A stretch of DNA of 64,000 nt from Isoetes taiwanensis. Its lineage: Eukaryota > Streptophyta > Lycopodiopsida > Isoetales > Isoetaceae. Under the pieces are notes generated by a model that was not told where the DNA came from, made no database searches, and worked only from the letters and a program-made list of their open reading frames with translations. The translations under genes and the position numbers were made by a program. This document shows positions 3,903-60,330 of this stretch, piece after piece; position 1 is the stretch's first letter; every line of letters begins with the position of its first letter. Where the stretch lies: the NCBI GenBank assembly GCA_021234155.1, contig JAJEKV010000035.1, positions 7,251,891 to 7,315,890 of the forward strand. The letters are read 5' to 3'.

Positions 3903-5078
3903 ATGCATTCGCAGGATTCTTCCGGCGAATCGCCAAATCGTCCACATCCCCAAATCGTCCCAGATCACTCTATTCAGTCTTCTTCTGCACAGTATTCTTC
4001 CGAATCAATCGATCCTGAAGGCTCGACTCCGTCCCACTCAGAGCAATTTATTGAAGAGGATCAATCTTCCGGTTCAAGAACCGCCACAGATCAACCTATC
4101 CAGTCCTCCGGCTCATTTCCTGAACAGCATTCTTCCGAATCGATGGATTTTGAAGTCTCGCCTCAGGCCGGCACAGTGCAATTTACTGAAGATGACCAAT
4201 CTTCCGGTCCAAGAACCGCCGCAGATCAGTCTATGCAGGCCTCGGGCTCATCTTCCGAACAGGATTCGCAAGAACCTGCAGAACTTTCAATTGAAGAAGC
4301 CTTGTTGTGCCATGAGGAGCTTGATTTTTCAGAACAGCATTCTTCCGAAGCAATGGATCTTGAAGGCCCGATTCAGGCCGGCACAGTGCAATTTACTGAA
4401 GATGATCCATCTTCCGGTTCAAGAACCGTCGCAGATCAGTCTATTCAGGCCTGGGGCTCATCTTCCGAACAGAATTTGCAAGAACCTGCAGATCTTTCCT
4501 TAATGTGCTTTTATGAGGAGCTTGATTCTTCAGAAATTCTCCAAGCGGGGGCAGATTCAAGTCATACACAACGCCAAGTCGACGCGAATCACTTCTCGGG
4601 CTCATTTGCTGAGGAGAATTCTTCCGATCAAGCCTTTGGCTCATTTCCTGATGAGAATCCTTTCGATCACTCCTCGGGCTCATCTTCTGAGGAGAATTCT
4701 TCCGATCATTCCTCGGGCTCATCTTCTGAGGAGAATTTTTCCGATCACTCTATGCAGGACTCGCGCTCATTTTCCGAGCAGAATTCTAATGCATCAACAG
4801 ATTCCGAAAATGCCATGCAGGTCGACACAGTGCAGAGTATTGAACGCGCTGAGTATTTTGGCAGATCTCCAATGATCATCGAAAATGAGGTCGAAAATGA
4901 GGAGCAAGAAACAGGTTCTGAACAGGGCTTTTCTAACGGAGATGAATCAACAGAATCCAGAGCCGCAATTCCGGTCCAAGCATTGGAAAATACCGCAGAA
5001 GATCCTTTTCGCTTCGCAAGATCTCAGCAAATTCGGTCAAACAATGGAGGCGGAAGAATTTCAAGGACAGTTCTATAG
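3903..5078 (+). CDS. Ser/Glu/Gln-rich repeat protein, family member 1 (391 aa)
   Basis: I do not recognise the protein family. The start at 3903 is chosen over the upstream in-frame ATG at 3846 because the leader before it aligns with that of gene 2. The product is acidic and low in complexity, dominated by Ser, Glu, Gln and Asp. It is built from degenerate repeats: a unit of about 60 residues with QSSGSRTxxDQ, SSEQxSxE and GTVQFTEDDxSSG in the first half, then short SSGSSSEENSSDHS units around residues 230-270. The last 90 residues (VDTVQSIERAE, IENEVENEEQETGSE, SRAAIPVQ) align with gene 2. There is no signal peptide or membrane segment. Sequence homologous to the C-terminal coding region of gene 2 continues at about 5205-5256, past the stop codon, so this copy may be shortened. 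Other frames are also open because the repeats lack stops; those are shadows. Confidence 0.6.
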   Translation: MHSQDSSGESPNRPHPQIVPDHSIQSSSAQYSSESIDPEGSTPSHSEQFIEEDQSSGSRTATDQPIQSSGSFPEQHSSESMDFEVSPQAGTVQFTEDDQSSGPRTAADQSMQASGSSSEQDSQEPAELSIEEALLCHEELDFSEQHSSEAMDLEGPIQAGTVQFTEDDPSSGSRTVADQSIQAWGSSSEQNLQEPADLSLMCFYEELDSSEILQAGADSSHTQRQVDANHFSGSFAEENSSDQAFGSFPDENPFDHSSGSSSEENSSDHSSGSSSEENFSDHSMQDSRSFSEQNSNASTDSENAMQVDTVQSIERAEYFGRSPMIIENEVENEEQETGSEQGFSNGDESTESRAAIPVQALENTAEDPFRFARSQQIRSNNGGGRISRTVL

Positions 5079-5900: not shown

Positions 5901-7612
5901 GGCTTTAGTGGGGATTAATTCTCAAAAATTAACAAAGATATGGCTTAGAACGTCTAGTTGATATGGTCTCTACTTCGACTTCACTTATGATGAAACAATA
6001 TAGAAGTTGGGTCCGTTTTTTTCCTCGGCATGCATTTTCGTGGCGCCATGTGGCGAGCCCAATATTGCGGAATGGTAGTTGGGTTAATGCATTCCGCTTA
6101 ACCGGCTGCGCAGGTTAGGGTTCTCCATTTTGTTTTTAGGGTTCATCTTTAGGGCTGCCGCCAGTTCTTCAGATGAAGCAGGTGCACACAGATCGTCAGT
6201 GCTTCATGCAGATCGAAGATGAGCATATGAAGCTTGTTTTTTACATAGATCCCCAGTGTAACACAGAAGCAGAAACGTAAAACTTCTGATTTTTTAAATC
6301 TGTTTGCTTTGCTCGCCATACCAGAGCATTTTTGAAGCCCCTTTGATCTGCTTTTGGGATCTTCTGGGATCTTGAAGCCTGGCGTGTTTTGCGGATCTTG
6401 AAACTGAGCGATTTGCGGGGATCTGCTCTGTTTTGCTCGCGCCGTTAGATCTTGAAGCCCTACTGCTTTCTTGGGATTAAAGAAGAAGCCCCGCTCTGTT
6501 TTTAAGCCCGCTCTCTTTGTTGCATTTGAAGCTTCGCCAGATCTATGAGGGAAAAAACGTCCCCAACTTCTATATTGTAGGGGAATGGAGGTTGGGGCCT
6601 CCATTCACCTATACATCATGGTTGACAAGAAAATGAGCTCAAGAAAAGATTGTGGCTTTAAATTGGACCATATAAGAGGCAAATCAATGTGGGCGAGCAT
6701 AAGGGCGAAGGAGCATTAAGGGACTAACATGGGCCCGCAAATTAGGATCTTCTAGCATGTCTCTCACGAACGTAAAGGACGGTTAGGCTGCATTCAGCCT
6801 TATCCGCCAATGTTACGTCGCCACGTGTCATATTTTCTTTTTGTGGATTTCTCCTGGCGTGGTTGCTGGTCGACATTCTGTTATTGCTGGTCGACATTCT
6901 GAATCTTGTTCCGCTCTTGCTCCACATTCTGTACAAAGAACATCTGCACCGTCCACGTGGCAGATATCAACGGCTGAAATGCGACCCCAAATCCCTTCCG
7001 TTAATCGAATGCATTTGGGCTTGATTCAGCCTTGATCAAACCGGCCTCGCCTCCGGCGTCGGCCGATTTTCTATTTGGAATCAAACTGCCTTTTCCTCTG
7101 AAACCGCTCAATACTTGTAGTGTCGTTTGCTCTTTTTAAAAAATAATCTAGATTATACATTCCTATATGGCAAAGTTTGGAACATAGTCACCTTATAAGG
7201 TTGGTATTGCAAGGCTTGTTTAATGTTGCAATTGACTACTTTTATTGATGGAAGGTGTTAGTGTCAAGCGGAAAAGATTAGCATCGTTTATATGTTTAAT
7301 TAGGGAGCAGTGTGATGTAAGGTTGGAAGATCAATTGGTTAATAGACAAATATACATGTGTGCATGTGTTTGTTCAGTTTTCAACATGAAAAATTGACCA
7401 TTCTTAATTTGGATTATTTTTAAATTTCAATACACATTTAGAACTCTATTTAGATTCTGGATTACTTGTTCTTTATTTTCTTCTTGATCAACAAAATGAT
7501 CAATTCACGTATTTCTATAGGATGTCTTCTTTGTTTAATTGGACAAGATGTTTAATTTCATAACATAAAATAGAACATGGGAAAACAATATTAACTAGGC
7601 ATGAAAAAATAG
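5901..7612. other. Intergenic DNA, no gene recognised
   Basis: No conserved protein is seen on either strand; the 151-codon frame at 6149-6604 shows no domain. A short direct repeat TTGCTGGTCGACATTCTG occurs twice near 6862-6900. CACGTGTCA at 6821 and CCACGTGG at 6953 are G-box-like words, but no transcript can be attached to them. Confidence 0.4.
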
Positions 7613-10700: not shown

Positions 10701-11462
10701 ACTTGAAGATTGTCTTTACCAGTTTAGAAGTATTAACTCTGGAAGAGCATATAATCTGCAGATTGTGATCCGAAATAGAATTCTCTAAGAAATTATGACG
10801 GTATAGTAATATGTTCATTTCTTGCACGACCTGAGAGTTTACATAACACCTATCATGTCGTGCATATGCCCTATCATCTCCAATCCAACCATTACACCAC
10901 GTGAAACCTGGGTCTCCCTGTAGTTCCATAAATCCCAACTCATTAAGCATGCTCAGCCACTGTTCCCTTTCGAATCCACGCACAACCTCGATCCCGCTCC
11001 CATATCTGTCGCTACTAGTTTCCACCATATTAAAGTCCCCAACCATAATCCACCATATATCTCTATCAAAGTTTTTCAGCCTGTTCTTCACACTGGCCCA
11101 CATGGAAGCTCTTTGTCTGGCTTGATTATGTGCGTAGATATTTATTACTCCCCATTTTTTACCATGAGCGTACTAGGTTACTATTGCGCACCTCCCAAAA
11201 TGATCTGTATATGTCGATAAAAGATTCAACTATTTTCTCCATGCAATAAATGTTCCCGCACTAGAGCTGCCACTAGACGACATGATGCCCATATAATCTT
11301 TTCCTAGTATGTTAAGCAGAACCCCAATTTCTTCCTTTTTACATTTATGCTCCTGCAAACAAACAATATCTGGAGAATTTTTTTTCAATGCTAGAGCCTA
11401 CTGCCTTTGGCCTCGGAGGATTTTACCCCCCTGATGTTCCAGCTAAGGATTTTATGTTCCAT
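7749..11462 (-). pseudogene. LINE ORF2: endonuclease and reverse transcriptase, decayed
   Basis: A plant L1-type non-LTR retrotransposon ORF2 read from an ATG at 11462. An apurinic-type endonuclease comes first: the start MEHKILSWNIRG, then a QEHK block, GDFNMVETSSDR and SISDHN. The reverse transcriptase follows: KNKCPGLDGIPAEFF, SGFIPGRSI, KLDFTKAYDSVSW, GIRQGCPL and the catalytic YADD at about 9370. Next comes the conserved region with KLLGIPIG, LSMAGRIVVAK and FVWGG. The C-terminal part, with WTGAGLSC and a CPICER.E.IEHC-type zinc segment near 8100, ends with a stop at 7749. Frameshifts and stops break the frame in several places (for example near 10400, 10140, 9910, 9360 and 8880), so the copy is inactive. 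Its ORF1 is displaced to 19723-21283 by an insertion. Confidence 0.92.
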
Positions 11463-11517
11463 TAGAAAATATATTCGACTGATTGACATCTCAAAGTGTT
11501 GTTCTCCCAATCTTGGT
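11463..11517 (-). other. LINE ORF1-ORF2 linker, proximal part
   Basis: Read on the minus strand this segment is open and continues directly into ORF2. Joined to 19723 and above, with a single AT at the junction, it continues the frame ending PRKKRV at about 19730 and runs through to the ORF2 methionine without a stop. This fixes the edge of the 8.2 kb insertion to within 2 bp. Confidence 0.8.
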
Positions 11518-12422
11518 ATTCTAGGGAAAGGTCCTTATGCACAAATATCAGCATCCGAAGTGAAGTGGTGTTTTCATTGAGCTGAATGAAAAGAGTACAA
11601 TGAATCATAGGAGTTTACAAATAACCCCAAATGAGTGAGTAACAACATCCTAGGCAGCCCAAACACCCCAAGTTATGCATCAACTGCTTCATCTCAAAGC
11701 ATATATGACTGCAAAAAAATCCCTCGATGACTCCACCAGACCAGCATCATTTTTCCGCCGCCTCATCGAATCCAGGACCCGACCCCCAAACACATAGAGA
11801 CTGTTCGAGAACTGCCAAGAAAGAGGATCGTCCAGTCCCTGCATACAACCGACCTCATAGAAAGTCAAGGCAAGACAATGAGTTAGAAGCCTGACAGGCC
11901 AAGCATCAACAAACGTTTTATGTAAGAAAGAACAAAAAGATGAATGGAAATCGAGAGAAATTGGTTCACTCGGAAGCCCATAGCTTCTGTAGGGAGAGAG
12001 AGTAAGATAGACTAGGCCCGACCCCGGGGGTCATCCCCAAGGTGCCCTCCAGAAGCGACAAGTGCTACGCTGGGAAATTGCAGAGGCCACCAGCCCTCAA
12101 CGAGACAGAAGAGAAGAGTAGAATCAGCCCTCACGGGGCGGGATGAACAGAAACCAAACGAAGCCAAGCGAACCAACCATGCGACCAGCCATAGAGGAGG
12201 GAGGAGGGAAACTTGGAACAAGGAGAATTCAGCTCAAAGGAAACGCCGATGAAAATTGCATGGAAGCTCTGAGGGGATATATAGCGCATGAGCTAAAGAA
12301 ATCATGTGCCAAAGAAAGCTCACGCTAAAGATGACTCCTACGTTCAAAATAGCGTGGCGCTTAAAGCAGAGGCGTCCCTTTCCCGGAATGATGGTTCTCT
12401 TCTATAAGAAGAGAACCATAGC
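11518..12422 (+). mobile_element. Hairpin-ended tandem element A1 (905 bp)
   Basis: Starts ATTCTAGGGAAAGG. It ends in a block holding the inverse of that start, CCTTTCCCGGAATG, followed by a terminal hairpin with arms ATGGTTCTCTTC and GAAGAGAACCAT and then AGC. The next element starts at once with the same ATTCTAGGGAAAGG. The first ~39 bp equal those of element A2 (12423), and the last ~215 bp (from about 12207) equal the end of A2 (from about 19508); the middle is unrelated. No coding region is recognised. One end is a short inverted repeat and its partner is subterminal, next to a terminal hairpin, which is the arrangement described for Helitron2/Helentron non-autonomous elements. Confidence 0.7.
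12207..12422 (+). repeat. 3' terminal block of hairpin-ended element, copy 1
   Basis: About 215 bp from GGAACAAGGAGAATTCAG to the terminal hairpin, repeated at 19508-19722 with about 90% identity by eye. Read on the minus strand, the hairpin and the GACGTC-like word are followed by a TATA-like TATATATCC and then the conserved CATCGGCGTTTCC and TTTGAGC. The same arrangement is seen in the related blocks ending at 56082, 59116 and 60328. Confidence 0.75.
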
Positions 12423-15400
12423 ATTCTAGGGAAAGGTCCTTATGCACAAATATCGACATCCAGACACAAAGAGGAACCTCCCTCAAACCCCATCATACAT
12501 TGAGACCCACGAGAGATTGTAAGGCACACCTTTGCTAGGAAAGTGTAATAATCATGAGATGAGGTGGGATGCCACTTGCAAATAGAGGGGAAGGGGTAAA
12601 GAAACCCTAAGACAACTGGACCGCATAAGGCAAAGAAGGCATGAAAATCGAACACAAACAAGATCAATGGCCACCACCAAAGCACATGAAATCAAATTGT
12701 AGAACCAACGTACCAACAAACTACAGAAAAAACCTAACGACAAGACGCTACGGAAGTAAGAACAACCATACCTAACTTATATTATTCATGCAGGACAGAC
12801 TCAAGCGAACTTTCATGAAGACAATGCAAATCCCATAATAAAAAAGACTAAAAACTATGCACCGTAGAATGCATAAAAAGAGAAGACATCAAAACCGGAC
12901 ATATTCAACAAGCAAACAAAGAGCACCTGGAACTAAAACTCAAGAATCAACGTACCAGCAGTGAACCACAGTGAATACTATAATGACAAAACACTACAAC
13001 AAACAAGGACTAAAACCTAAACATATACGCTACATGCATAACTAGTTCCTACGGGAACAAGACGATAGGGACCCCGAGACACAAGAACAAAGAAGGTTTT
13101 ATAAGGTGACAGAACAATTATGCAATTGAGAACACCGGTAGACGATGCCACAGAGTCAGCGAGGATGGGATCAAGGCCAAGAAAAAGAATGGATGAAGAA
13201 AACTGAGTGCAACCTGAAACAAGAACAAATACCATTTAAGAATGCAGGACAACGGACCACAAGAACCACTACAACATGCACGAATTTGCGATGCAACCGC
13301 ATTTGAAATTTAAAATGCAGGCCAAATGGGAGAATGCCGCGGGAAAAAGGGAACACCAAACAACTCCTTCAGTTTGTAAGAGGTCAACATAGAAAAGGCA
13401 TGACGACTGGACCAACAAGACAAGAAGAACTACGTCAAATCAAGGGGCAGACAAAGGAGGGAATCAAGACAACAACAGAGCAAAGATGTATCTCAAGGGA
13501 TAAAATGGAAACAAGAGGAAAGGAACAAACATAGGGTGAAAAAAGACAAACAGGAGACCAGAATAAAATGGATAGAAAAAGGGATCGAGAATAGAGAAAC
13601 AAAGCAAACGAGATAAAATGGCCGAGGACACTAATGAGACACTAAGAATCTATGACAAAGAGCGAATATAGGCCCTCATAAGGGCATCCATGAGAACCAC
13701 TGAGAACACATGAGAAGATTGGAGTAAAAGAACAAATAGAGCAACAACAAGAAATAGCAAGGACTAAAATTCATGAATGTATACCCACATGCATAACCGA
13801 TCCAAGCGAATTTTCAACGTAGAAACAACGATAGGGATCTTGAGATTCAAGAACAATCTAGAGGACTGGACCAAAGAACCCATTATGGTGAGAGAAAGAT
13901 GGGGAAAGATGGGTGCTATATGACATCGTCAGAAGAAGCAGAGATAAGAGAACAACTCGGTGAACAACTTGCAAATTTGGTTGACGAGGGCAAACCGGTC
14001 ACCGAGACCAACAAGAATAAAAAAGGCCAAGCAAGGTGAATGAAACGACTGGGGTCAACATAGTAAAACAACAAAATGAATGGACACCACCAGGGCAAAA
14101 AGCACTATGATGAGTCAAGAGGCGGGCAAAGGAAGGAGTCAAGACAATAGAAGAGCAAAGACGATTCAAGAGATAAAATGAACAAACAAAGAGGAAAGGG
14201 ACAAAATGCAAAATGAAAAAGGAAAGGAATGCGAGATTATAATGAAATGGATGGAATAAGGGATTAGGAATAGAGGAACAGAGCAGATTGGGACAAAGGA
14301 GCTAAGGCCACCAATGCAAATAAAGCCCTCGAAGGCATTCACGAGAAACTAAGAATCAATGATAAAAGAGAAGAGTATAGGCCCTCATAAGGGCATCCAA
14401 AAGAACAATTGAGAATATATGCGAAACAAGCACGCACTTGCCCACCTATACATACACCTGAAAACAAAGCTCAAGAATCTTAGAGCAAAAAAGGGAAGCA
14501 AAACAAATGAAATGGATGGAGAAATGGGATAAAGAAAAGAGGCACTAGAAAACCGCTGTGAAATGGAAAGGCGAGGGAAATAAATTGGGCAATCGAACAA
14601 ACTACCACTGAAAAGACCACGGAAAAGCACGAGTGAGAGGAACAAATCACGCATACGCAAGTGAACAAACTACTGCTGAGAAAAACATGAGACAAGAATG
14701 CTATAAGCAATCAGACAGATGGGACAACTCAGGACAACTCGGACAAGCAGAGCAGCGTAATGACGTATGGAAGCAACTCAAGCACAACCCGGACTGCAAG
14801 AGCTAGGACTCAAGGGACACCATAAGAGCTCAACGAGACAAATGGAACAACAGTCGACCAAAGGGAATAATGGACGTCATGTAGTAAAGGGAACGAGTAA
14901 AGGCAGTCCAAAGAAGCCAATTGACCAAAAGAATTGAAGGGGCACCCGGCTAGGTGGTCAACACAAGTACATGGAACTAGCCACATAAAGGAATATAAAA
15001 GAAGATTTGCAACTAAATGTCACAAGCACCAATGCCGCAAGAATGCAATAGCTCAACCCACACAAAATGCCAACTGAGATATGGCACTGGCAAAAGCCAT
15101 GTATAAATGAGCCAAATGATTCTAGCAAATACCACCAATTGTAAAACTCCTGCAAAACGACCAAAATGTAAGCGACCACCACAAATGGCACCAATAGACC
15201 AACGACGGGGAAACATGAGATCCAGGACCACATCTAAGTATGGAAGCAAAGCGCAACAAAAGGACTAATTGTGGTAGAAAATAGAGACGTTATGGACCAC
15301 AACCATGTCGATGAGATTTGAAAGTGTCGAGAATAACCAAAAGCAACATGGCATGAACTAACATGAATCACCAACTCATGACGAATGCAGCTAAGGAAAA

Positions 15401-16621
15401 GTTCATGAGTAGAAAAATGCCAGAATATCCAAATGGAGAAGGTTATATTCAAGAAACTGGAAATACCTGACTCGCCCGACAACTCATGCTAAAGTCCGTA
15501 GGTTAAGTGCCAAAATGTCAAGAAAAGGGGGCAACGGGCATGTGTTGATTAAATACAGGATATAGTGAGGAATTGCCCAAAATGCAATGAAGCAACTAAA
15601 TGCAAAACTGACTTGGCGTAAAAAAGCAACATACAAAGTAGTTAGTCCCTTGTTGAACTCTATGGACAAAGATTTGACAACGATCCCCATCAATGTCGAA
15701 CCCCTTCATAATGACAAGACGAGAAAAACTACCAAGAAGCCAGTCCGACATTGACCCCTCTAGTCGCCGTGTCAAAAAATGATTCTTATCCGCATCTACT
15801 CGAGATGCCATCCCCAACCGAACCCTAGCTCGAAGCTTTCCACACCAAGAACCCTGCAACTAAAACCAACGAAGGCTGTAAATGCAACATTTGCAAAAAG
15901 GAGGGAACCATACATGGTCAGGCCACCAAAGGAAAAAACCATCAACTCTGACAAATATACTAATCTAAACAGCAACTGGCCCAAGGGAACTTGATAAAAA
16001 CATCTGACAACCCTACTTTTACCCACTACGTAACTTCCAAAACAAGACAGAGTTCCAAACCTTCAAATCCGAAAGAGAGAGCAAAAGGACATAAAATAGA
16101 CCACCAAAGAGAGAAACTATCACTAGAACGAATCTACTAAATCAAACACGCCAATCACCACTAAAACTAGAAGGACTAGTCAATATTTAAAATGAAGGTA
16201 AACAAGAAATAAGATAGGCGACAAGAAGATAGATAGGCCACCCAAGGAAACATACCACCACAACAATTATACAAAGCTAAATGCAAACCGACCCAAGAAA
16301 AAAACCAGACAACTCTGCAAAAATGAGCAATAACCCATAATTTATACATTTACAAATACACGCAAGTAAGAAAGCCAAAAAAAGATTTGACACGTAAGAT
16401 GGTTAATCTAGATACGGAAAAATACAATGAGGATGGACACCATAAACCGACCAACCCAAAAAGCTGAAAGAAAGAACAAAGAAAGCGCATACCATTACCT
16501 AACACGACCCATGCAAGAACCAGACAACCAAGAAAGCAACGAAGCAAACAAGGACTGACTCTAGATACCAAGCTCAACAAACAAGAAAATCTTTGAGGAG
16601 GGGAGGGATAGGGCACAACGG

Positions 16622-16993
16622 ACCCAAGCACAACCAACCTATGCACCAAGACCTTTGTGTTAGTAACGGCTAATAATATGCACGAGGACTTCTTGTTATT
16701 AATATTTAATAATATCATGCACAAGGACCCTTGATTATAATGTTTATAACAAAAAATGTTTAAGGTTGGTAACAAAAATAAAATAAAAGGGCACAATGGG
16801 CATCAAAACAACAAGGGGAAGAGAAGGCGTCGAATAGACGGACCAAACTCAACCTAGGCACAACCAACCTATGCACCAGGACCTTTTGTTATTAATGTCT
16901 AACAATATGCACCAAGACTTTTGGGTATTAATGTTTAATAATATTATGCACAAGGATCCCTTATCATAATGTTTATAACAAAAAGGTTTAATG
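16622..16993 (+). repeat. ~135-bp direct repeat inside element A2
   Basis: Blocks beginning ACAACCAACCTATGCACC and ending AATGTTTATAACAAAAA occur at about 16622-16757 and 16860-16993, separated by about 100 bp. They differ by scattered substitutions. Function is unknown. Confidence 0.7.
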
Positions 16994-17457
16994 CTATAAA
17001 AAGGGGGAACAATTGACTTATGCATAGATGAGGCAAGGACTAGACGAACCAATCTCAACACAGAACCGATAAAAAGGAGGCAACGACGAGAGTAATCAAT
17101 CTCAACATAGAAACTATTGTAACCATCCTTTAAAGACCTCGTAATCATCCCTTTAACATCCTTTTAAGACCTCGTAATTCATCCTTTTAAGACCTCGAAC
17201 ATAACCAACCCCCCATGCATCAACCTACAAAAAAAAAGAAGCATAACTTGACCGAGGCCACTTTCGCACCTGGAAAGAAAACCTTATAAGGCTAAGAACA
17301 AGACAAACAGAGCGAGAAAAAACTTTTGCTATGATCCAACACTACACACTGCCTTAAGGATGTGAAATCCAGACAAACCACTTTGGAACTGGAACTAGAA
17401 ACAAGAAACTTGCACATATAAACATTTTAGAAGCAAGAACAAGATAAACAAGCAAGG

Positions 17458-17582
17458 CAAATGATTCAGATACACATACGGTGCATGATGGCATGCAAGG
17501 CAATCTTTAGCTTTTGCATATGATCCAAATACCATACGGTGCATGATGAGGCACGCAAGGCAATCTTTTGCTTTTGGTGAGG
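17458..17582 (+). repeat. ~64-bp tandem repeat inside element A2
   Basis: The unit containing CATACGGTGCATGATG, GCAAGGCAATCTTT and GCTTTTG is present twice in direct orientation with small changes. Confidence 0.65.
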
Positions 17583-19507
17583 CAAACAAGGTAAAAACTT
17601 TCACAAACCTTACCCATTGCTTTCGTGAGGATGGTTACTCAAGATAGAAGTTGTGAGACCGTTTTGATGAGGTTTTTAACTCTAGCCTCTATGACAACAA
17701 ACCATCTACACAACAAAATGATTTTCTAACAATATGTAATCATAATAAAGTTCCAAAAGTCTATTTGAAACCATGACTTCTTTATAACACTGGGCTTCTG
17801 CATAATATGAAGTCATGTAACAAAGAGGATGCTGCAATCTAAATTCAACATTCTAATTAGTATGAGTGTAAATGGACGTAAACTGATGAAGAAGACAAAT
17901 AAGGATGTTCAGCCAGAAGAGTGATAAACGTCGATGAAGCTGTGCGCAAGCAACAAATCCAGTGCCAACCTGCTTTAAACATAAGATTCATACATGGATA
18001 GAAACAAGGGTGTACATGGTACAGACTGGAGAAAAATAAGTTGGAACAAGGCTCCGGGTGGGTATGCCGAAAGAAAAAAGGGGAGTGAGAACCACATGAA
18101 CAAAGACAGAAAAAATACCGGAAAAAACATAGGAAGGAAAAGACAAACAACGAAACCAACAAAAGAAACACACCATCGAGAACCAAGGCGAAAAAGAAAA
18201 AGAAACGAAACAAATCATAAAAAACTGACACTATCTAGGCAAAAAGCCCCCCACAGACCTCCATGAGATATAGATCATAATGGCAATTGTCCACACATAG
18301 GCTTAATAAAATCACACTATAAGAACAAAAAGGGGCAAAACAATCAGAATAACAACATTAAATAAAGAGACAAGTGATGAGAGAATTAGACATCTAGCAA
18401 AAAGCTAATGCGTTGATATGATCATATACATACTAGCCATAGGTTCTCCGTAAAAAAGTACTTCCTTAGTTTAAAACAAATATGAATGCGCATGCAAAAG
18501 TTCATGAGATCACACACATAACCTTGAAAAATAAAACAAAACAAACCATACATAACAACCCACACACCATCGAACCTTAAAAACCATTCACTACCTTACA
18601 AACCCAAATAAACATTACAAAAAACACTACATAAAAAAAACCATTAACCATAGCAAAAAACCAAACTAAACCTAGGAAAAAAGGAAAAGAAATCACGAAA
18701 AGGAAGGGGGGGAATTGGGATACCGGGACTCGGGACCACCTGACTTCGTCGGGATACCCCGACTTGGGATCCCCCGGCAAAAAATACAGGCCGGGCAGAC
18801 CAGTTCTGGCGGCCGATTGGAGCAGGGACCGCCCAAACCTGGGACTTCGGCTATGAAGAAACTCGGATTGGGCTTCAGAGAGATGAGAGGGGAAGGAACA
18901 TATGCTGGGAAGGAAACAAGTTAAGAACCCAAGAGCCAGATACCAAAGGAGATGAGAGAAGCAACCGCAAACAGGATCGTGGGGCAAAAAGCATGACGAA
19001 TCCCACAACCAGAGCAGATGAACAGACCCAAACCGGAGCAGGAGGGCTCGAAACCGACAGGCAAACAAGGGAAAGATCGAAGGTAAGCATCCCGCTGCTA
19101 GTCAACAAAGGAGAGCAGAAGAACATGGCGAATCAGAATCATGGAGAATCAGAAAGGATAGAATCAGAAAGGATAGAGCAGAAGAAAAGGGCGAATAAAA
19201 AAGGATGGCGCAGATAACAGAATAACATGGCGAATCAGAAAGGGTAGAGCAAAAAAGGATGGCGAATCAGACAGGATAGAGCAAATAACAGAATAAGTGG
19301 ATCAGAAGGGCTAGCATCATAAAACAGAAAAGACTAGCACGAAAAAGTTTTGAGGGAACAAGCCAAGCAAGCACGAGTAAATGCCCATTGGTTTTAAGGG
19401 ATCGGGACTGCAAGAATACCGTGATCCCCAAAAGAGCTGGTAATTCTGAGCCCAATCCATCTGGAGCAGTCAGAGAGCAGTACCTGAATGAAAGAATAAG
19501 CTGTAGG

Positions 19508-19722
19508 GAAACACTGGAACAAGGAGAATTCAGCTCAAAGGAAACGCCGATGAGAATTGCATGGAAGCTACAGGGATATATAGCAGACAGAGCTAAAGAA
19601 ATCATGTGCCAAAGAAAGCTCACGCTAAAGATGACTCCTACGTTCAAAATAGCGTGACGCCAAAACAGACGTCCCTTTCCCCAGAATGATGGTTCTCTTC
19701 TATATAAGAAGAGAACCATAGC
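19508..19722 (+). repeat. 3' terminal block of hairpin-ended element, copy 2
   Basis: Second copy of the 215-bp block at 12207-12422. On the minus strand it reads hairpin, GGGACGTCTGTTTTGGCG, TATATATCC at about 19573 and CATCGGCGTTTCC. The position of the TATA-like word suggests this end could drive transcription of the minus strand of the element; no transcript evidence is available. Confidence 0.7.
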
Positions 19723-21283
19723 ATAACTCTCTTTTTTCTTGGCATTCCATCCGCAGGATTCTCTATATTTTCATCCATTGGTAAATCCGCCCATCTGTTA
19801 TTATGCACTGGAAACTGCTCATTGGCAGATTGATATTCTATTGCCATATACTCAGTTAGTGCTTCCTCATTATGATTCTCTGTTGCTTGAACATTGAAAA
19901 AGTTAAACCTGTGTATTTTTTTGTGTTATCTCTCGAATTCGGTAATCTCTTTCGTATCTGATTTTTAAGCCTGCCACCATTTCTGTGTTGTACCATGACC
20001 CATCCATCCTCATTCACGTGTTCCTTTCTATTATCTATGTTTTCCCCTCGTTCTAGCTTCTTGTCCAATTCTGGATTACCTTTAGATGGTAAATTAACTT
20101 CACATTCCATTTCACCTGAGTTTAAATGACTCTTCTCTTTTTTTTTCCCCATTTAGCTCTATTTCCTGTTCACCTGTTACCTTGACATTGTCTTGCAGTT
20201 TTGTGGCCTTTTCTCCTGCTATGACGTTACCTTGTGATTCTCTCTGGAACACAAAGCAATCTTCCAGACCCTTAATTTCCATTGTGGGAAACATTCTTCT
20301 AATCTCCCACCCGTTTATGAGTCTTAACTTGAATAGTGAGTAGTACGTCCCACTTTGCACAAGAGTGAACTGTGGAACCATCTGCTGCTGTAATACCCAC
20401 ATAGATTCTTGGCCCTTTTGCAATCGAATGAGTTATGTATGTGCCCAGATTCTTTGCTATGGCAATTAAAAATTCTGAGTCATGGAAGCTGTTCAATCTC
20501 AAGCCAGCAAGGAAGTTTAACAGCTGACAGTTTATCTGGGGTAAAACCTGGAGAAGAGTATTGGTACAACACAAATTCCCCCGCGAAGCGATCTACTCCT
20601 CTGGAGACTATGTTTTCCACAGCTTTCTCATCATCAAATAATATTAGGAAAAAGTTGCTCCCAATAGCTTTGATGCTTTGAAATTGCGGCATATTCAAAG
20701 CATCGAGATGCAAAACCTCACCACTGCCTTAGAGATTAGATTTTCCATTTTTTAATATGCCTCGAATGATTTATCTCAGTTACTTTAATATTGCAATGTT
20801 CTGGCTTGAGGCCTGCTGATTGGAGAAGCTGTTCTAGATTGGTAGACATGTTCTTAGAGGAAAGAGAGTTCAAGGCTTCTTCTACTCTGTCACTACGGGA
20901 TTCATTTGGAACTCCTTTCTTAATCCACTCAGAGAACCTGGGTCTTATAATTCTTTCTACAGTATTTCCCTGTTTCCACGAGTTCGATCTCTTAGCTTCA
21001 TTATTGTTCACAGTAAGCTTCAAAATTCTACAGTTATTCAGCTCCTCTTGTTTTATCATCGGTATTAAGATCTGCGACTGTATGCTCAGGAATAGAATTA
21101 GATGGGATGCTTATCCCTTTTTTTCCCTTTCCAAACTTCTGGCCTGTCACTTCCATGTCCTTGCAAACCCCAGATGGCGCCGCAAACCCCTTCTGCTTCT
21201 TTTATTGTGCTGCCGGGTTTTTCCCCTTTGTCCACTACAGTATTTTCCTTTTTGAAGTCGTATTTAATTAAAGTGGGTCTCAT
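19723..21283 (-). pseudogene. LINE ORF1 (DUF4283-like RNA-binding protein), decayed
   Basis: Minus-strand frames from a methionine at about 21283 form a typical plant L1 ORF1. An N-terminal basic/charged part is followed at 20480-20713 by a DUF4283-like core, FLILFDDEKAVENIVS, then GEFVLYQYSSPGFTPDKL and KLPCWLEIEQLP, which matches the usual pattern of phenylalanine, SPGF and W(L/V)xLxxLP. A segment with AKNLGTYI and GPRIYVGI follows, then a charged C-terminal tail ending RKKRV at the insertion edge. Several frameshifts separate the pieces. It belongs to the LINE whose ORF2 is at 7749-11462. Confidence 0.8.
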
Positions 21284-21994: not shown

Positions 21995-22695
21995 CTTTTC
22001 TCCACTCGCGAGTCGAGAAAGCCAGATCAAAATTAAAAAGGCAACTCAGAGTGATGCAATGCTGAAGGCCTTTCTCGACTCGCGGCAGCTCAGAGGGAAA
22101 AACACAGGTCAGAAGGCCTTTCTCGACTCGCGAGTCGAGAAAGGCAGCTCAAAGCGAAAAACACAGGTTTTAGGGGTCAGAAGGCCTTTCTCGACTTGCG
22201 AGTCGAGATAGGCAGCTCAAAGCGAAAAACGCAGGTTTTAGGGGCCAGAAGGCCTTTCTTGACTCGGGAGTCGAGAAAGGCAGCTCAAAGCGAAAAACGC
22301 AGGTTTGAGGGCCTTTCTCGACTCGCGAGTAGAGAAATGTAGCTTAGAGCCCAAAAAAACAAAAAAACAAGAAAAAAAAATTTCCTTTTTTTTGTAAGTA
22401 GGAAAAAAAAAATTTTTTTGAGGGCCTTTCTCGACTCGCGAGTCGAGAAAGACCCTCAAGGGCCCTCTAATGGCCTTTCTCGACTCGCGAGTCGAGAAAC
22501 GTAGCTCAGAGCAAAAAAAAAAAAAATTTCCTTTTTTTTTTTAACTAGGAAAAAAAAAAGTTTTTTGAGGGCCTTTCTCAACTCGCGAGTCGAGAAAGAC
22601 CCTCAAGGCCCCTCTAATGTCCTTTCTCGACTCGTGAGTCGAGAAAGACAGCTCAGAGTGAAAAAACGCAAGTCTGAGAGTCTTTCTCGGCTCGC
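21995..22695. repeat. Array of a 28-bp palindrome (CTCGACTCGCGAGTCGAG core)
   Basis: About nine full and two half copies of a self-complementary word occur in 700 bp. The perfect form is CCTTTCTCGACTCG followed by its own reverse complement (22117-22144). Other copies start at about 21995, 22185, 22253, 22312, 22425, 22474, 22572 and 22621, with half-sites at 22070 and 22682. Spacers are 21-125 bp and partly repeated (CAGCTCAAAGCGAAAAAC, CAGGTTTTAGGGG). Some copies extend the palindrome further: around 22418-22460 TTGAGGG and CCCTCAA lengthen the arms to about 20 bp. A/T tracts between copies (22365-22418, 22512-22565) are themselves inverted. A further variant copy lies at 24798-24824. Confidence 0.9.
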
Positions 22696-50395: not shown

Positions 50396-50586
50396 TTTTG
50401 ATCTCGTATTTCGCAAAGTAGGGATAATGTTTACGCTTTGAGAAAAAAAAAATTGGGACCCGCGCCCTCGCCGCGGACTGCCGGTGCCGTGGGTTATGGG
50501 TTAAAGCGACCCGCCTCGTCAGCGACCGCTGGGTTTTAATGGCTGACACCCACCACCGACGCTGACCCGCCCGCCGATTTGACTGG

Positions 50587-50800
50587 GGGTTCGCCCGAGC
50601 GAATCCGCAACAGTCGCGATGGGCACCCCGTACCTATTCCGACCTTCCTGCCGACGCCTGTACCGCTTAACTCGGGTTTGGGTTCGCCCAGGCGAACCCG
50701 GCAGCAATGCCACGTCCGCCGCCACGTCCCCTGCGGGTTCGCGTGGGCGAATCCGCCGAGTTCGCCTGAGCGAATCTTCGGGGTTCGCCTGGGCGAACCC
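50587..50800. repeat. Palindrome array, right flank (GGGTTCGC words)
   Basis: Five copies: 50587-50606, 50680-50699, 50735-50754, 50760-50776 and 50781-50800, with the same arms as the left flank and variable centres. Flanking text such as GCCACGTCC mirrors GGACGTGGC-type text of the left flank in part. Confidence 0.88.
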
Positions 50801-50843
50801 GCTTGGCGGTTTGACCCAATTTCGGGAGCCAATAAAGTTGGCG

Positions 50844-51540
50844 CGAATAGTATGCTTCAATTCACTTGCCACTAAGTTCGATAGGTTGATCCAAATTGGT
50901 AAGGTATTTAGCATATCAAAAGGGATATTGAAGCCAGTGAATAGGATTTTTAATCAGTTGAGCCATTCTTGGGAGCTGTATTTGCAAGATAGTTCCTTGG
51001 TTGAAGAGTGTGCGGATGATAAAAATATTCGTCGTCATATGTATGAATTCATATCCATTGCAGACCTTGAGGTTAAAGAGAGGGATTCGATAGTTGATGT
51101 GATTGGTATTGTTATTGTAGTCGAGCAGGCATCACGTGTGTATCGCAAGAACGGAAGCCCTGTTGATCGTAGGGTGATGTTTATAAAGGATGTGTCTGGT
51201 AAACAGATTGAGGTTACAATGTGGGGCTAAGTATCATTGAGAGAAGGTAGACAAATTGAAGATCAGATGAATGCTAACAAAGAACCTATTGTTGCGATAA
51301 GAGGTGCCAAGGTTAGTGATTACGCAACCAAGTCCTTGGTTACTATTCATTCGACACAGTTGCAAATAAACCCTACTATTCCTGAGGGTAAGGAGTTGAG
51401 AGATTGGTTTATTAGAGAGGGAAAGAAGTCTGCATCTATTTGCCTGTCAATGTGTTCGCAGCCGCTGTCTATTAGTCCTTCTGTAAAATTTGTATCAGAC
51501 CTATCAGAGCCGGCACTTAGAGACATAGCAAAACCAATCT
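50844..51540 (+). pseudogene. RPA1 middle part (DBD-A end, DBD-B), with a nonsense codon
   Basis: Resumes with RIVCFNSLATKFDRLIQIGK, VFSISKGILKPVNR and SWELYLQDSSLVEEC (end of DBD-A), then FISIADLE, SIVDVIGIVIVVEQ and VMFIKDVSGKQIEVTMWG (DBD-B). A TAA at 51228-51230 follows directly; the same frame continues VSLREGRQIED, AIRGAKVSDY, STQLQINPTIPE and LRDWFIREGKK, matching the RPA1 order. The TAA is therefore a nonsense mutation. The frame runs to LRDIAKPIS, where the CACTA element is inserted. Confidence 0.88.
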
Positions 51541-53812: not shown

Positions 53813-54288
53813 TGGTTGAGTTGAGAGGTACGATTATGAACATAAAATATGATTTCATGTATTACATGGCTTGCCCATTGAGATCTGCTAGTCGTGAATG
53901 CTTGAAGAAGGTTGCAGCGACTGAGGATGGATTGTCGCATTGTAGTAGTTACAATGTTCGCGTGAAGGAATGTTCGTACAGATATGTGGTTTCATTGCAA
54001 GTTTTAGACCACACAGGAGCTCTGTGGGTGACAGCTTTTCAAGATGTTGGTGAAGAGCTATTTGGCTGCACAGCAAAGCAACTAGATGCTTGGAAACTTA
54101 CAAATATTCAGAAATTCAATCATATTGTCCAGGAGACCTTTTTTAAGACATCCGTATTCAAAATAAGAATTAAGGAAGAAACATATAATGACATCCAGAG
54201 GAATAGATATGTTGTTGAAAGAATTGAGAAGGTAAACTATTCCATGACCTGCACGAAATTGCTCCAGGAAATCTATAAGCTGGCTTGA
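53813..54288 (+). pseudogene. RPA1 3' part (DBD-C) with a lost zinc ligand
   Basis: Continues the RPA1 frame after the CACTA element: VELRGTIMNIKYDFMYYMAC, then the zinc-ribbon region C-x8-C-x13-C-x2-Y, YRYVVSLQVLDHTGALWVTA, FQDVGEELFGCTAKQLDAWK, and FKIRIKEETYND with EKVNYS, ending with a stop at 54286-54288. This is the C-terminal OB fold that holds the trimer together. In active RPA1 the ribbon is C-x8-C-x13-C-x2-C in plants; here the fourth Cys is Tyr (codon TAC at 53950-53952, one base from TGC). Together with the nonsense codon and two insertions this supports long-term loss of function. Confidence 0.9.
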
Positions 54289-55097
54289 TGTTTATATGAG
54301 TCGAACAGTTTCAGATGGTGTTTATAAATATTTTGGATGTCCATTTCGAGAGGTATTGTGAATACCTTTTGTATAGATTGTGAATATGCCTTGGTTTTTG
54401 TATAGCAACGTTCATTTTGTTATCCCATATTATGCAAATAAATTCGAACATCTTTAGAGGTTGGATCTTCGAGCGGTTAGAGTTATTCTGGAGAATGTTT
54501 TTATGTTATGTCTGAAACTTAGGAAGGCATCAAGATCAATGCTTTATGTGACAGAACCAGTTCTTGCTAAATAAATAATAATATGTGATACGGATCAAAA
54601 AACGTCTGCAAGAATAAAAAGATTCACTATAAATTATAAGACTACTTTTAATAAGTTGACAATTGCAGCAGACAATGCAATTCAAGCCTACAGATATGCA
54701 TGCGGCATGCACATGTGATTGTTATAACTGCAAAAAGTACTAACATCTTATTATGCCAGGAAGAAAATGTTACTGAGCTACAGTTCCTCTAAATTATGTT
54801 GCAGCGAGCAATTTAGGCAAAGCGGTGTAGATAGGAGTTCAAAAATTTATCTGGCGCATGGCAGAAATGGTGGATGCATAGGTTTGAATTGCTATGTAAC
54901 AAGAAAAGAAGGTTCAATGCCGTGCAACCGTTTGGGCCATGAGCAGCAATGTACATTAGATTAGGTTAGATGGAATTTTGAACAAGAGCACTGCGACCAG
55001 TCTTTGTGACAAGAAAGGAACTTAGATTAGATTAGATGGAATGTTGAAGAAGAGCACTGCGGCCAGTCTTCCCCAACAAATTAGGGTACTTCATAAC
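54289..55097. other. RPA1 3' flank and unassigned DNA
   Basis: About 150 bp after the RPA1 stop may be its 3' untranslated region. A 65-bp direct duplication is at 54969-55003 and 55035-55070 (GATGGAATKTTGAA, AGAGCACTGCG, CCAGTCTT). No gene is supported; the 65-codon frame at 54767-54964 has no domain. Confidence 0.4.
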
Positions 55098-56082
55098 ATT
55101 CTTGGAAGACTACAAACAACAACAAAACACCATCGTGAAGTGAAGTGGCTTTCCTATTGAGCGTTCCAAAAACATCGAGTACAACAGTAGAGTACTAACA
55201 ATGAATGGCCAAAAACATATCAAAACCAAACATGTTTAAGACCCCGAAACTAGACAATCATCGAGGGTCTTAATAAAAAAAATATAAAGCCACACAGACT
55301 CAAAGTCCAAAATCTTATCAACTGGACTAAAAACCCCGCCCTTTCGAGTTTTCGGAGAAAACCATGAAGATAAAAAAATGGACTAAGAGCAATACGACTG
55401 ATGAAGCTAAGATTTGAACCAGCAGCAATATGTCGAACAATCTCCATGTGCCAGAAGACTCCACGCGCCAAAAATTGCAAGGACCATGAAAAGTCTTTGA
55501 AATTGCATCGGCAAACTCCCAAAATCATCTCAACTGCAAAAAGAGAGTAAAACGACCTGGAGAATATGACTCAGGCAGAAGAGAAGAAAACTGTTAAATC
55601 TTTGTTAGCAGCCCTAAAAAGGGATAAAAAATGACAAAGAGTATAAAGAAATCTCCAACTCTTTCAACAAGTGCCCTTTAGAAAAACTAAGTCCATTAAT
55701 TGGGTCGGGGAAGAGCATCCGCCTAGCCAAGAAAACACATCTGCAAACTAGTGCGGGGAAGAACATCCGCCCATGTCTAATTTACCATAAAGCAAAGGGG
55801 TCGGGGAAGAACATCCGTCTAGTCAGGAATAATCATCTGCAAACTAGCCAGGGAAGAGCATCCGCCCCTATATTATTGCACCAAGAAACAAGGCTTGAAT
55901 GAGGGTTGGGAGGGAGGCAAAGCTAGAAGCACAACATAGACAAAGTTGGAAACGCTCAAAAAGAAGGCCGATGAAAAAAGCCTGAAACTGAATCAATATA
56001 TAGGCAAAAGTGCAAGAAAAAAGGTTCAAGCTATTTCCGTCTTTCCAAGAATGATGGTTCTATGTTTCCATAGAATTATTGC
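55098..56082 (+). mobile_element. Hairpin-ended tandem element B1 (985 bp)
   Basis: Starts ATTCTTGGAAGACTAC. The 3' end has the inverse word GTCTTTCCAAGAATG followed by a terminal hairpin (ATGGTTCTATG and its complement) and ends ATTGC. The next element follows immediately with the same start. The first ~37 bp match element B2, and 55927-56082 match 58960-59116. Subterminal words (AAGTGAAGTGGC, TATTGAGC, GAGTACAA) match those of element A1 at 11556-11600. An internal word CCCCGAAACTAGACAATC at about 55240 recurs in element C1 at about 59490. Confidence 0.72.
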
Positions 56083-59000
56083 ATTCTTGGAAGACTACAA
56101 ACAACAACAAAACATCATCTCAAGGCCGAAAGAAGAGGAACACTCTACCTCCTCATCAAAGAAATGGAAAACCATAAGATGTTCGCCAACACTAAGTGTG
56201 TGTGCGCGCATGTGCGTGTGCGTGTAAATGACAGATCTCGAAAGAACATGGACAACAAATACATATGCATGGCAATAAAGTGTGAGAGCCTAAACAAAAA
56301 ATTCATAAGGCCTCTGCGAAGATGTCTAGAAAGAGAAAGGAATTGAAACTCAAATCAAGCTTGGAAGATATGGTTCAGATATCATGAACTCGACACGTGA
56401 AGAAGTTTTGGTTAAAACAAATGCAAAAGTGAGAGAATATAAGAAGACATTGATTTTTGTGAACTTGAGGTAATGTGAGGATTAGGGACAAAAACTCAAT
56501 ATAAACCGTGGACTAAAGGCTAAAATTTGAGCTTGACCTACGGAAAAGAAACAAAGGCTATAGGTGCGATAATTAAAGAAGGTACCTCCATAGTTTGAAA
56601 CGTTAAAAAAAAATGGAATAAGAGAAGAAAGTAATGGCTTAACAAAAGGTCTCGTGCTAGCCAAACATCCAAAAATCCTGCATATTCCCCCATGCTAGAC
56701 ATAGCAGAAAGCATTAAGGGAGCAAAGCAAAAGTTTGAGCAAGTAGAGTAGAGCAAAGGGACCAATTCGGCCATGGGATACAACTTGATGAGGGAAATGG
56801 AAGAGCTAGAAACAAAAGATTGGTCAAAATAGATAGGAAAAAACTTAGAGCAATGGAGATAAAAACGTAGCACTTAAGGACATAATAGAATAGAAATTGA
56901 AGTAGCAATGGAAAAAATAAGGAGTAGAACAAAGCTGTAAGCGTCGGGGCGACAAACCACACTATGGGGAGCAAACTTAGAATAATTGGGAAAAACATGA
57001 ATATCACAAATAAACTAAAAGATCCACCTGCAAAGCTGACAGTACATGATGAAGAAGCTACACAATATGTTAGGAGCATTTTTAGAATCCCTAGTGCAAG
57101 AGTGCAAACAAAAAAGTAAGAGAAACATAGCATAATCTTGACTAGCAAAGGAGCTTAAAAACCAAATAGAAAATAACAAAAAGGCATTGTTGAGGGCATA
57201 ATTCGACAACTAAGAATCAAGCAGATGTGCCCAAATTTACGAACCATTTCGTAATTGTCAACCTACATGGGTAACACAATATTTCTTTGACATGGAGTTA
57301 CCATTGAAATAAAGAAAGTTGGATGTTCCCTAATTCTAATGTTATGGTGCACTTTGGAAAACCTTAGGCTAGGAGACACTAGTGCAGAGTGACATATTCT
57401 ATGCCTAGGGCCATTGACAACTATGTCTAAGGCATTGGTATAGTTTAATTACCAAATAGCCAAAGACAACTATGTCTAAGGCATTGGTATTAATAAACAA
57501 CTAGCCAAATAACATATCCGCATCAGACTCATGGGGATGTGTGCTATAGTCTCCATGCTCAAGTGGTTAACAACTATGTTCATCAGCACTTAAATTGCAG
57601 CAAAGTGCAAAATGCGACCCTTAATATCAATGCAGATACTATTCCACCCAAAGTGAGAGATGTAATACCATGGTTTTAAAAGCAATCTGGTCATCAAATG
57701 TTGTAGGCGACTGCAAACTCCCAAAGGAGCAATATGATCTCTAGCTAAGGATATAAAAACCCCTTAATAAAAAGGATATAGCAAAGATAAGGGAGCAAAG
57801 ATATGAGCGCCCCTAAAATCGGGGAGCACCGACATGGTTCCGCCATGAATCCGGAGGCAGCCAGAGCTGGTTTCCTACCCTGTAGCAGGCCAAATCGGCA
57901 CAACTCTGAGATAAGAATATTTAGATAGCCTGAGAAAATTCATGAGAAGCAGATGAAACCACGGTTTTGGAGCTTTGGATCCGGGTAACAAAAGTAGCAG
58001 AAAAGGCTCACCTTAAGCTAAATTAAGCAGAAGAAGATTAAGACAGAGCAAGAAAGAAAGGCCCACTGTAAGGAAATAGCCGGACAAAAACAGACCTGAT
58101 AGCCATTTTTAAAAGACAATAAAAGATACTAAGAAGAAAAATCGACAGGCAAAACAAAGACTTTTAACATTCTAGACAAATGGGACAAACAAGACAGAAT
58201 CAGAGCTACAATCTGTGCAGAAAACTACCTGCCTCCTTCCTTATCTACGTTAGCAGTTTTGGACGACAAGCTGCCATCGAATGTGCGAGAAAAAGAAGAG
58301 TAGGATCAAATTAGAAGTACCAAAAAAGGCCAAATTGGAAGGCCAGCACCTCAGAATAGAAACATGGATGTACGAAGAAATTAGGACAGAATTGGGCAAA
58401 CTAATCTAACACTATCCATGAAAGGTATCAGAAAAGATCAAGAAGAAGATACCTACTGGAAATCTCAAAAATTGGATTCAGAAAAGATCAAGAAGAAAAT
58501 GGAAATCTCAAAACTGGAATCAGAAAAAATATGCATGGATAAACAGAAACGCAAATGTTTATGAGCATGAGATTTTAGTCACAAATGTGATGTTTACAGG
58601 ACATCAGCCTGACGAAAAGTAGAACACATTTTCAGACTGACGAAAAGCAGAATACCGTTTAAAAATTTTACTACTCTAAAAATCATAGGAGAGAGTTGGA
58701 AGAGATTTTGCTTGAAAAGTTGGAATCGATAGAAACCAGACCCGGCCATAACTCGAGAGATGAATTTACAGAGGGGACCATAAATTTCTATGTCATTCTG
58801 AGCAAACGACTCCTATGAGTTAGAATCAAAAAGGAAAATCGAACTTTCAGTTCTTAACATCTAGAAAGAATAACGCCAATACGAAGAGCACGCCTATCAA
58901 ATTCTAAACGTAAACAAACTAACTAGGAAAGCTAATAAACAAACCAACTAGGAAAGCTAGAAGCACAACATAGACAAAGATGGAAACGCTCAAAAAGAAG

Positions 59001-60328: not shown

Positions 60329-60330
60329 AT

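What the first reader, a model, noticed from the sequence alone, without database searches (positions are those of the whole stretch)
11518..19722. Two unrelated-bodied elements with identical ends sit head to tail and end in a hairpin
A1 and A2 share ~39 bp at their starts and ~215 bp at their ends, with nothing in common between. The short start word (ATTCTAGGGAAAGG) has its inverse not at the far end but just inside a terminal hairpin. This asymmetric inverted repeat plus 3' hairpin and tandem habit resembles Helitron2/Helentron non-autonomous elements, which are less documented in plants than canonical Helitrons. It does not match canonical Helitrons (no CTRR end) or LTR elements.
Basis: partly seen in the sequence, partly recalled or inferred. 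Interest (0 to 1): 0.85.

Follow-up and report, generated by a model that had tools for sequence, protein, structure and literature searches.

The report
Paired jumping DNA travelling as one
In a plant genome (very probably the quillwort Isoetes), two stretches of gene-less mobile DNA with the same ends, each closed by a hairpin, were found inserted as one clean unit, and the same head-to-tail pairing recurs across the genome, which points to rolling-circle "jumping genes" that regularly run past their own stop signal.

Summary
A1 (11518-12422) and A2 (12423-19722) share 37/39 bp at their starts and 202/222 aligned columns at their ends, with unrelated bodies. The start word recurs inverted (13/14) just before a 31-nt 3' hairpin. 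The anatomy is that of non-autonomous Helentron/Helitron2-class (HINE-like) rolling-circle elements. New evidence: 12 of 12 repeat paralogs read show the empty site, so A1+A2 together are one precise 8,205-bp insertion without target duplication, against LTR and ordinary TIR transposons. The family is large: 592 3' ends and 270 head-to-tail junctions, reversed controls 0. The pairing is not casual: of the 40 best-scoring A2 copies, 38 directly follow a short leader element, and in 13 composites with both ends listed no further unit was seen behind A2. I read the pair as a leader+trailer composite that moves by bypassing the leader's terminator. Helentron-type Rep/PIF1 genes exist in the same genome; those bounded have other ends. 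No autonomous partner was found (most ends could not be listed), and A1-A2 show no transposase remnant. The 5' hairpin of Helitron2 proper is absent. New variant of a known kind; class strongly suggested, enzyme unproven.

The parts
11518..12422 (+). A1, the leader element (905 bp, no coding remnant found)
   Evidence: ends by empty site and by 20 loci of the 3' end; upstream of A2, 13 of 15 loci have an A1-type leader body, 1 (L061) a B1 type, 1 (L059) only the shared end was matched
12423..19722 (+). A2, the trailer element (7,300 bp; A 42%, T 17%; no coding remnant found)
   Evidence: 40 best of 223 candidate copies
11518..11531 (+). 5' asymmetric inverted repeat of A1, ATTCTAGGGAAAGG
12207..12422 (+). 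3' terminal block of A1 shared with A2
   Evidence: 202 of 222 columns identical to 19507-19722
12377..12389 (-). inverted copy of the start word in A1, one base shorter
12391..12419 (+). 3' hairpin of A1 (bypassed terminator, inferred)
   Evidence: DNA fold z -4.5, 0 of 200 shuffles
12420..12425 (+). head-to-tail junction AGC|ATT between A1 and A2
   Evidence: 270 matches genome-wide to loop + second hairpin arm + AGC + start word with up to 3 mismatches, reversed control 0
12423..12436 (+). 5' asymmetric inverted repeat of A2
19507..19722 (+). 3' terminal block of A2
19674..19687 (-). inverted copy of the start word in A2 (13 of 14)
19689..19719 (+). 3' hairpin of A2 (used terminator, inferred)
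   Evidence: DNA fold z -6.4, 0 of 200 shuffles
11398..11517 (.). left flank, part of an interspersed repeat (LINE-like by eye)
   Evidence: joined flanks run uninterrupted in 12 of 12 paralogs read
19723..19822 (.). right flank, the same repeat continuing

Best explanation
A1 and A2 are non-autonomous rolling-circle transposons of the Helentron/Helitron2 class. They share the two sequences the transposase would need: a short 5' end, and a 3' end made of the inverted start word plus a hairpin. Here they form one composite: a short leader followed directly by a long trailer. Shown: the pair sits in its target as a single precise insertion without target duplication, and trailers like this one nearly always follow a leader. 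Inferred: a Rep-helicase supplied in trans nicks at the leader's 5' end, fails to stop at the leader's hairpin, runs on to the trailer's hairpin, and inserts the whole strand at a Y^ATT-type target. Stopping at the first hairpin would give solo leaders, which exist.
For: Exact ends, 20 of 20 loci ending at the same AGC. Empty site without duplication or loss at the join in 12 of 12 paralogs read. ATIR and 3' hairpin. 592 3' ends and 270 junctions, controls 0. 38 of 40 best A2 5' ends directly preceded by a leader's 3' end, 2 by host DNA. In the 20 first loci 9 of 14 leader-type 3' ends run into a trailer start and 0 of 6 trailer 3' ends do. 13 composites with both ends listed: second unit 6.1-8.0 kb, 0 followed by another listed junction; for 9 of the 13 host letters are printed behind A2. 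C1-type leaders carry their own diverged trailer type, 2 of 2. Unique host 3' flanks start with A in 78 of 81, ATT in 53 of 81. Helentron-type Rep, PIF1 and a weak endonuclease-like domain in the genome. Hairpin as terminator and its bypass are reported for Helraiser in PMC4778049 (passages).
Against: No autonomous copy with these ends: nearest of 198 listed ends lies 123 kb from 68 Helentron-type Rep places and 35 kb from 150 canonical ones, though most ends were not listed; 14 stretches downstream of Helentron-type Rep hits lack these ends. 5' end folds no better than shuffles (z 0.11). Leader and trailer distances correlate only weakly, r 0.33, Mantel p 0.117, 12 of 19 loci usable. A1-led and B1-led trailers are alike, so leaders are swapped, or A2 joined more than once. 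Two of 40 A2 copies are solo. One of the first 20 loci, L008, has the reverse order: an A2-type fragment (A2 6551-7121) runs straight into an A1-type body (from A1 base 40) without an intact junction. Some junction hairpins are damaged (L052, L058, L077), so bypass there may follow damage.
Confidence: 0.75

Rival explanations
1. Same class, but the tandem is made by A2 inserting on its own at the 3' edge of leaders already in place, because that edge offers a preferred target.
For: The junction AGC^ATT looks like the genomic target Y^ATT. A1 and B1 leaders both carry the same A2 type. Leader-trailer distances correlate weakly. Solo A2 exist, 2 of 40.
Against: A2's own 3' edge has nearly the same last 220 bp yet no further unit was seen behind it: 0 of 6 and 0 of 13 by listed junctions, 9 of these with host letters printed, against 9 of 14 for leaders. 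By my own arithmetic the one-sided chance of 0 of 6 is about 0.012 if loci were independent, which the C1031 copies are not. C1 leaders have their own trailer type (2 loci).
Confidence: 0.25
2. Heterodimer made through circular intermediates that recombine in their shared ends before insertion.
For: Shared ends of 39 and about 220 bp would allow it; the 3' block is alike between bodies (A1-bodied L003 is 99% identical to A2 in it). L008 shows an A2-type fragment before an A1-type body. Joined-end products are reported for FoHeli1 in PMC5148889 (passages).
Against: Would be expected to give both orders with intact junctions; with an intact junction only leader then trailer was seen in the loci read.
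Confidence: 0.12
3. A canonical plant Helitron family mobilises them.
For: Canonical-type Rep is abundant (150 scored of 1,813 candidates); A^T insertion is compatible with the ambiguous junction.
Against: No 5' TC and 3' CTRR; hairpin 3 nt, not about 11 nt, from the end; an inverted start word, not part of canonical ends (canonical features from PMC4067079 passages).
Confidence: 0.1
4. LTR retrotransposon fragments or a TIR transposon.
For: Repeated termini and non-coding bodies.
Against: No target duplication, insertion exact; the repeated blocks are not LTRs of one element; the inverted word is not terminal at the 3' end. PBS/PPT were not searched for.
Confidence: 0.02

Closest known systems
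HINE / DINE-1, non-autonomous Helentrons (PMC4067079, passages read)
   Same: short inverted repeat near the 5' end, its copy some tens of bases before the 3' end, a 3' palindrome, T-rich target
   Different: recurrent leader-then-trailer pair; a 7.3-kb non-coding trailer; start word at base 1 (mite HINEs: 2-4 nt in) and 3' copy 35 nt from the end (mite HINEs: about 38-60); host is a plant, where that paper could not rule out contamination for its few hits
Helitron2 (PMC3627910, passages read)
   Same: asymmetric terminal inverted repeats of 8-15 bp, 5' copy 0-2 bp from the end, 3' copy directly before the hairpin
   Different: no 5' hairpin; Y^ATT rather than TTTT^T/C target; 3' copy 35 bp rather than about 20-30 bp from the end
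Helraiser / Helibat read-through (PMC4778049, passages read)
   Same: hairpin as terminator; bypass carries downstream DNA along
   Different: there bypass is occasional (about 12% of events in the assay described); here the bypassed arrangement is the common state of the A2 copies examined
Helentron-type elements of this genome (L025/L026 family)
   Same: inverted start word about 40-48 nt from the 3' end and a small terminal hairpin sequence (weak fold, z -1.83)
   Different: different terminal sequence; code for Rep and helicase pieces

Membership tests
Helentron / HINE | 12-15 bp inverted repeats near both ends, the 3' copy set back from the end | tested here: met
   14-nt word at base 1, inverse (13 of 14) 35 nt from the 3' end; spacing slightly outside that given for mite HINEs
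Helentron / HINE | palindrome near the 3' end | tested here: met
   13-bp stem, fold z -6.4 and -4.5
Helentron / HINE | precise insertion without target duplication | tested here: met
   12 of 12 paralogs read show the empty site; one insertion only
Helentron / HINE | insertion in TT or T-rich target | tested here: inconclusive
   81 unique host 3' flanks: A 78, AT 65, ATT 53; cut position ambiguous within ATT
Helentron / HINE | same ends as an autonomous Rep/helicase/endonuclease element | tested here: inconclusive
   not found near 198 listed ends nor in 14 Rep-downstream stretches; most ends were not listed
Helitron2 | asymmetric inverted repeats with 3' copy directly upstream of a hairpin | tested here: met
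Helitron2 | 5' hairpin that includes the 5' repeat | tested here: not met
   first 60 nt of A1: fold z 0.11, 100 of 200 shuffles as good
canonical Helitron (Helitron1) | 5' TC and 3' CTRR | tested here: not met
   3' CCATAGC in 20 of 20 loci; 5' ends seen start ATTCTAG
canonical Helitron (Helitron1) | hairpin about 11 nt from the 3' end | tested here: not met
   3 nt
LTR retrotransposon | direct LTRs and target duplication | tested here: not met
   PBS/PPT not tested

The most novel reading that the evidence does not exclude
A two-part rolling-circle transposon in which a small, swappable leader supplies the working start. The long trailer, though it carries the same start sequence and its own terminator, is rarely mobile alone, so terminator bypass has become the normal way of moving rather than an accident.
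Probability: 0.4. Interest if true: 0.68.

Novelty: new variant of a known kind. Interest (0 to 1): 0.5.

Why it matters
It gives a natural, many-copy test of terminator bypass, the step by which Helitrons are thought to pick up foreign DNA: 270 junctions keep the loop and second arm of a hairpin that was passed (the first arm was not part of that pattern). It also places Helentron-type Rep-helicases and Helentron-like non-autonomous elements on multi-megabase contigs of a land plant genome, where PMC4067079 could not exclude contamination for its few plant hits.

Tried and rejected
Hunt for the autonomous partner. Pfam PF14214 over the genome (150 of 1,813 candidates scored), PF20209 (37 of 37 scored, 24 matches), a Helentron-type Rep protein (79 of 528 scored), 12 stretches downstream of Rep hits (one of them, L038, extends L024) and two more divergent ones: none carries these ends. 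The L025/L026 family was bounded by alignment of its two copies and has different ends. A shared 3' boundary was also read for the L034/L037 family; the other families were not fully bounded.

Coding remnant in A1-A2: Pfam on 3 of the 4 listed frames of at least 130 aa that touch A1-A2, tblastn and profile search with Rep, helicase and endonuclease alignments found nothing convincing. No positive control was run for the profile search.

Leader with the ATTGC end as possible autonomous element: tblastn found no transposase in L052 and L053; L053 contains a reverse-transcriptase-like reading frame, called so by eye. Leader with the GGC end: L085 and L086, no transposase by tblastn.

Co-divergence of leader and trailer by distance: weak and not significant.

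Substitution spectrum of A2 (15 loci, first 1.4 kb): C>T 24 and G>A 20 per 1,000, so no clear strand bias of deamination; T>C 18 against A>G 6.5 and T>A 8 against A>T 1.3 are uneven and unexplained. It does not explain the T-poor strand.

Literature: among the titles and abstract starts listed by the searches, and the passages read, I saw no description of a fixed-order leader/trailer Helentron pair; no paper was read whole, and the library is open-access only. Tandem insertions of Helitrons in general are mentioned in PMC5148889. The HELIANO paper (gkae679) is not held and may report related plant elements.
Full report
WHAT IS THERE. The window is G000:C1040:7251891-7315890 of a 1,658,258,908-base assembly in 1,110 contigs. 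Size and make-up fit the published Isoetes taiwanensis assembly, 1658.30 Mb in 204 scaffolds and 909 contigs, together 1,113 (PMC8566536, passages). A land-plant-like RuBisCO small subunit is present. The species name is my inference, not a tool result. A1 (11518-12422) and A2 (12423-19722) abut head to tail. They share 37 of 39 bp at the start and 202 of 222 aligned columns at the end, and BLAST found nothing else in common. The start word ATTCTAGGGAAAGG recurs inverted at 19674-19687 (13 of 14) and, shortened by one base, at 12377-12389, each directly before a hairpin.

EXACT ENDS AND EMPTY SITE. In 20 of 20 loci of the 3' end the similarity stops after the same AGC. The window insertion lies in an interspersed repeat, LINE-like by eye. 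A query joining 11420-11517 to 19723 onward gave 40 matches, 138 candidates at first look. I read the 12 returned as loci, and 12 of 12 run uninterrupted across the join...CTTGG[T/C]^ATAAC..., with no target duplication and no loss at the point of insertion. The window copy lacks 7 bp some 35-40 bp left of the join that 11 of the 12 have; L040 has a larger gap nearby. I take this as ordinary variation of the repeat. The cut is ambiguous by two bases, because target and element both continue AT. So A1+A2 are one precise 8,205-bp insertion.

A LARGE FAMILY WITH A PAIRING RULE. The 3' terminus has 592 matches with up to three mismatches and its reversed control 0. The junction (loop, second hairpin arm, AGC, start word) has 270 and control 0. 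The two patterns differ, so the ratio is rough, but it is near the one-half expected if most copies are pairs. Of 100 listed exact 5' ends (160 in all), 51 follow a clear leader end, 3 a near match, and 46 host DNA, sorted by eye. From the A2 side, 40 of 223 candidates were scored. All 15 loci returned have a leader's 3' end directly before A2: 13 with an A1-type body, L061 with a B1 body, L059 with only the shared end matched. Of the other 25, 12 do by printed flank letters. I read the remaining 13 by fetching DNA: 11 have a leader, and two, L072 and L075, have host DNA. That is 38 of 40 with a leader and 2 solo. The 40 are those most like the window's copy, so old or odd copies are under-sampled. 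Some are local duplicates (C1031 copies; C908 17.957 and 17.969 Mb; C941 copies). The leader hairpin is damaged in L058 and L077.

DIRECTION. Among the first 20 loci, 9 of 14 leader-type 3' ends run straight into a trailer start, while 0 of 6 A2-type 3' ends do. Of the 82, 13 have the next 3' end listed: 12 second units measure 7.3-8.0 kb and one 6.1 kb, and none of the 13 next ends is itself a listed junction. For 9 of the 13, one search prints host letters behind A2; for the other 4 it rests on absence from partial lists. Against a strict order, L008 has an A2-type fragment (A2 6551-7121) running into an A1-type body from base 40, without an intact junction. Solo leaders exist (L003 and L009, host DNA on both sides). 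Other leader types are B1 (about 1.1-1.2 kb, 3' end ATTGC; L061, L052) and C1 (3' end GGC; L085, L086). Over the first 97 bp of the trailer (19 loci: 14 labelled A1-led, 3 B1-led, 2 C1-led), A1-led and B1-led trailers are alike (median difference 0.03 within and between), whereas C1-led trailers form a distinct type (about 0.22 from the others, 0.03 from each other). Over bases 41-700, A1-led against the one long B1-led trailer differ by 0.068 against 0.052 within A1-led. This suggests that leader and trailer co-diverged at least once, and that leaders were exchanged at least once. Distances of leader and trailer among the 12 of 19 loci with enough leader body correlate only weakly (r 0.33, Mantel p 0.117).

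TARGET. From 81 unique host 3' flanks, not counting 5 that begin ATTCTAG: first base A in 78, AT in 65, ATT in 53. From 43 unique host 5' flanks: last base C in 21, T in 15, A in 5, G in 2. The patterns needed a fixed set of letters 11 bases out, so about a quarter of copies were not seen. The rule is about Y^ATT, with the element itself starting ATT.

ENZYME. The genome holds many canonical-type Helitron Rep domains (150 scored of 1,813 candidates) and a separate Rep type with DUF6570 (24 matches). The L022 reading frame scores on Helitron_like_N (68.7 bits) and DUF6570; L024 adds PIF1. The motif FQxRGSPHDHMLLW is visible in these frames; that it marks the Helentron type is recalled, not tested. 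A downstream domain looks like the exo/endonuclease of Helentrons only weakly: Pfam E 0.096, under the cut-off, and no PDB match. It recurs in 9 of 12 downstream stretches fetched. The L025/L026 copies bound one such element: start AAGAGAAGGAG in L025 (two bases shorter in L026), inverse 40-48 nt before the end, then GTGCGCAAGCAC near the end; its 3' fold is only somewhat better than shuffles (z -1.83, 10 of 200 as good). None of the Rep stretches examined bears the A1/A2 ends, and no transposase remnant was found in A1-A2. The partner is therefore unidentified. It may be extinct, or among the ends and Reps that could not be listed.

MECHANISM. Shown: shared termini, precise duplication-free insertion, abundance, a strongly preferred order. 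Inferred: trans-acting Rep-helicase, nick at the leader start, bypass of the leader hairpin, stop at the trailer hairpin. PMC4778049 (passages) reports for Helraiser that the start is essential, the 3' hairpin is a terminator, and bypass transduces flanking DNA. The strongest rival is that A2 inserts by itself at leader ends. The 0 of 6 and 0 of 13 counts at A2's own, nearly identical edge speak against it; leader exchange and weak correlation speak for it.

COMPARISON. By structure it works like, and is probably one of, the Helentron-class non-autonomous elements (HINEs). It is not Helitron2 in the strict sense, since the 5' hairpin fails, and not a canonical Helitron. PMC3627910 lists Helitron-5_SMo among Helitron2 elements; I recall SMo as Selaginella moellendorffii, another lycophyte, so the class in lycophytes would not itself be new. 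The Isoetes genome paper has no occurrence of 'Helitron' in its main text.

Noticed in passing
window 12423-19722 and 54000-64000: Strongly A-rich, T-poor strand without matching GC skew in A2 (AT skew about 0.46 over 12001-16000), and up to 0.60 at 60001-62000, there with GC skew 0.26; the second stretch has no similarity to A2. Unexplained.
   Followed up: partly
window 22084-22666: Tandem units of 68 and 147 bp carrying the palindrome CTCGACTCGCGAGTCGAG.
   Followed up: no
window 50583-51227: Reading frame with a Replication protein A OB domain (REPA_OB_2, E 6.9e-13), possibly from a canonical plant Helitron.
   Followed up: no
window 3981-4747: Tandem repeats of 135 and 39 bp, multiples of three, in a 419-aa open frame without Pfam match.
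   Followed up: no
L024, L025, L026, L028-L037: Helentron-type Rep/PIF1 elements in several families on multi-megabase contigs of a plant genome.
   Followed up: partly
L003 against window 19507-19722: An A1-bodied solo copy carries a 3' block 99% identical to that of A2 though the bodies are unrelated; the shared ends seem to be exchanged or homogenised.
   Followed up: no
L006, L007: A leader copy followed by ATTCTAGTGAAGGG, a near-copy of the start word, in two related loci; may be an older member or chance.
   Followed up: partly
L008 2040-3216: An A2-type fragment directly followed by an A1-type body lacking its first 39 bases, the reverse of the usual order.
   Followed up: no
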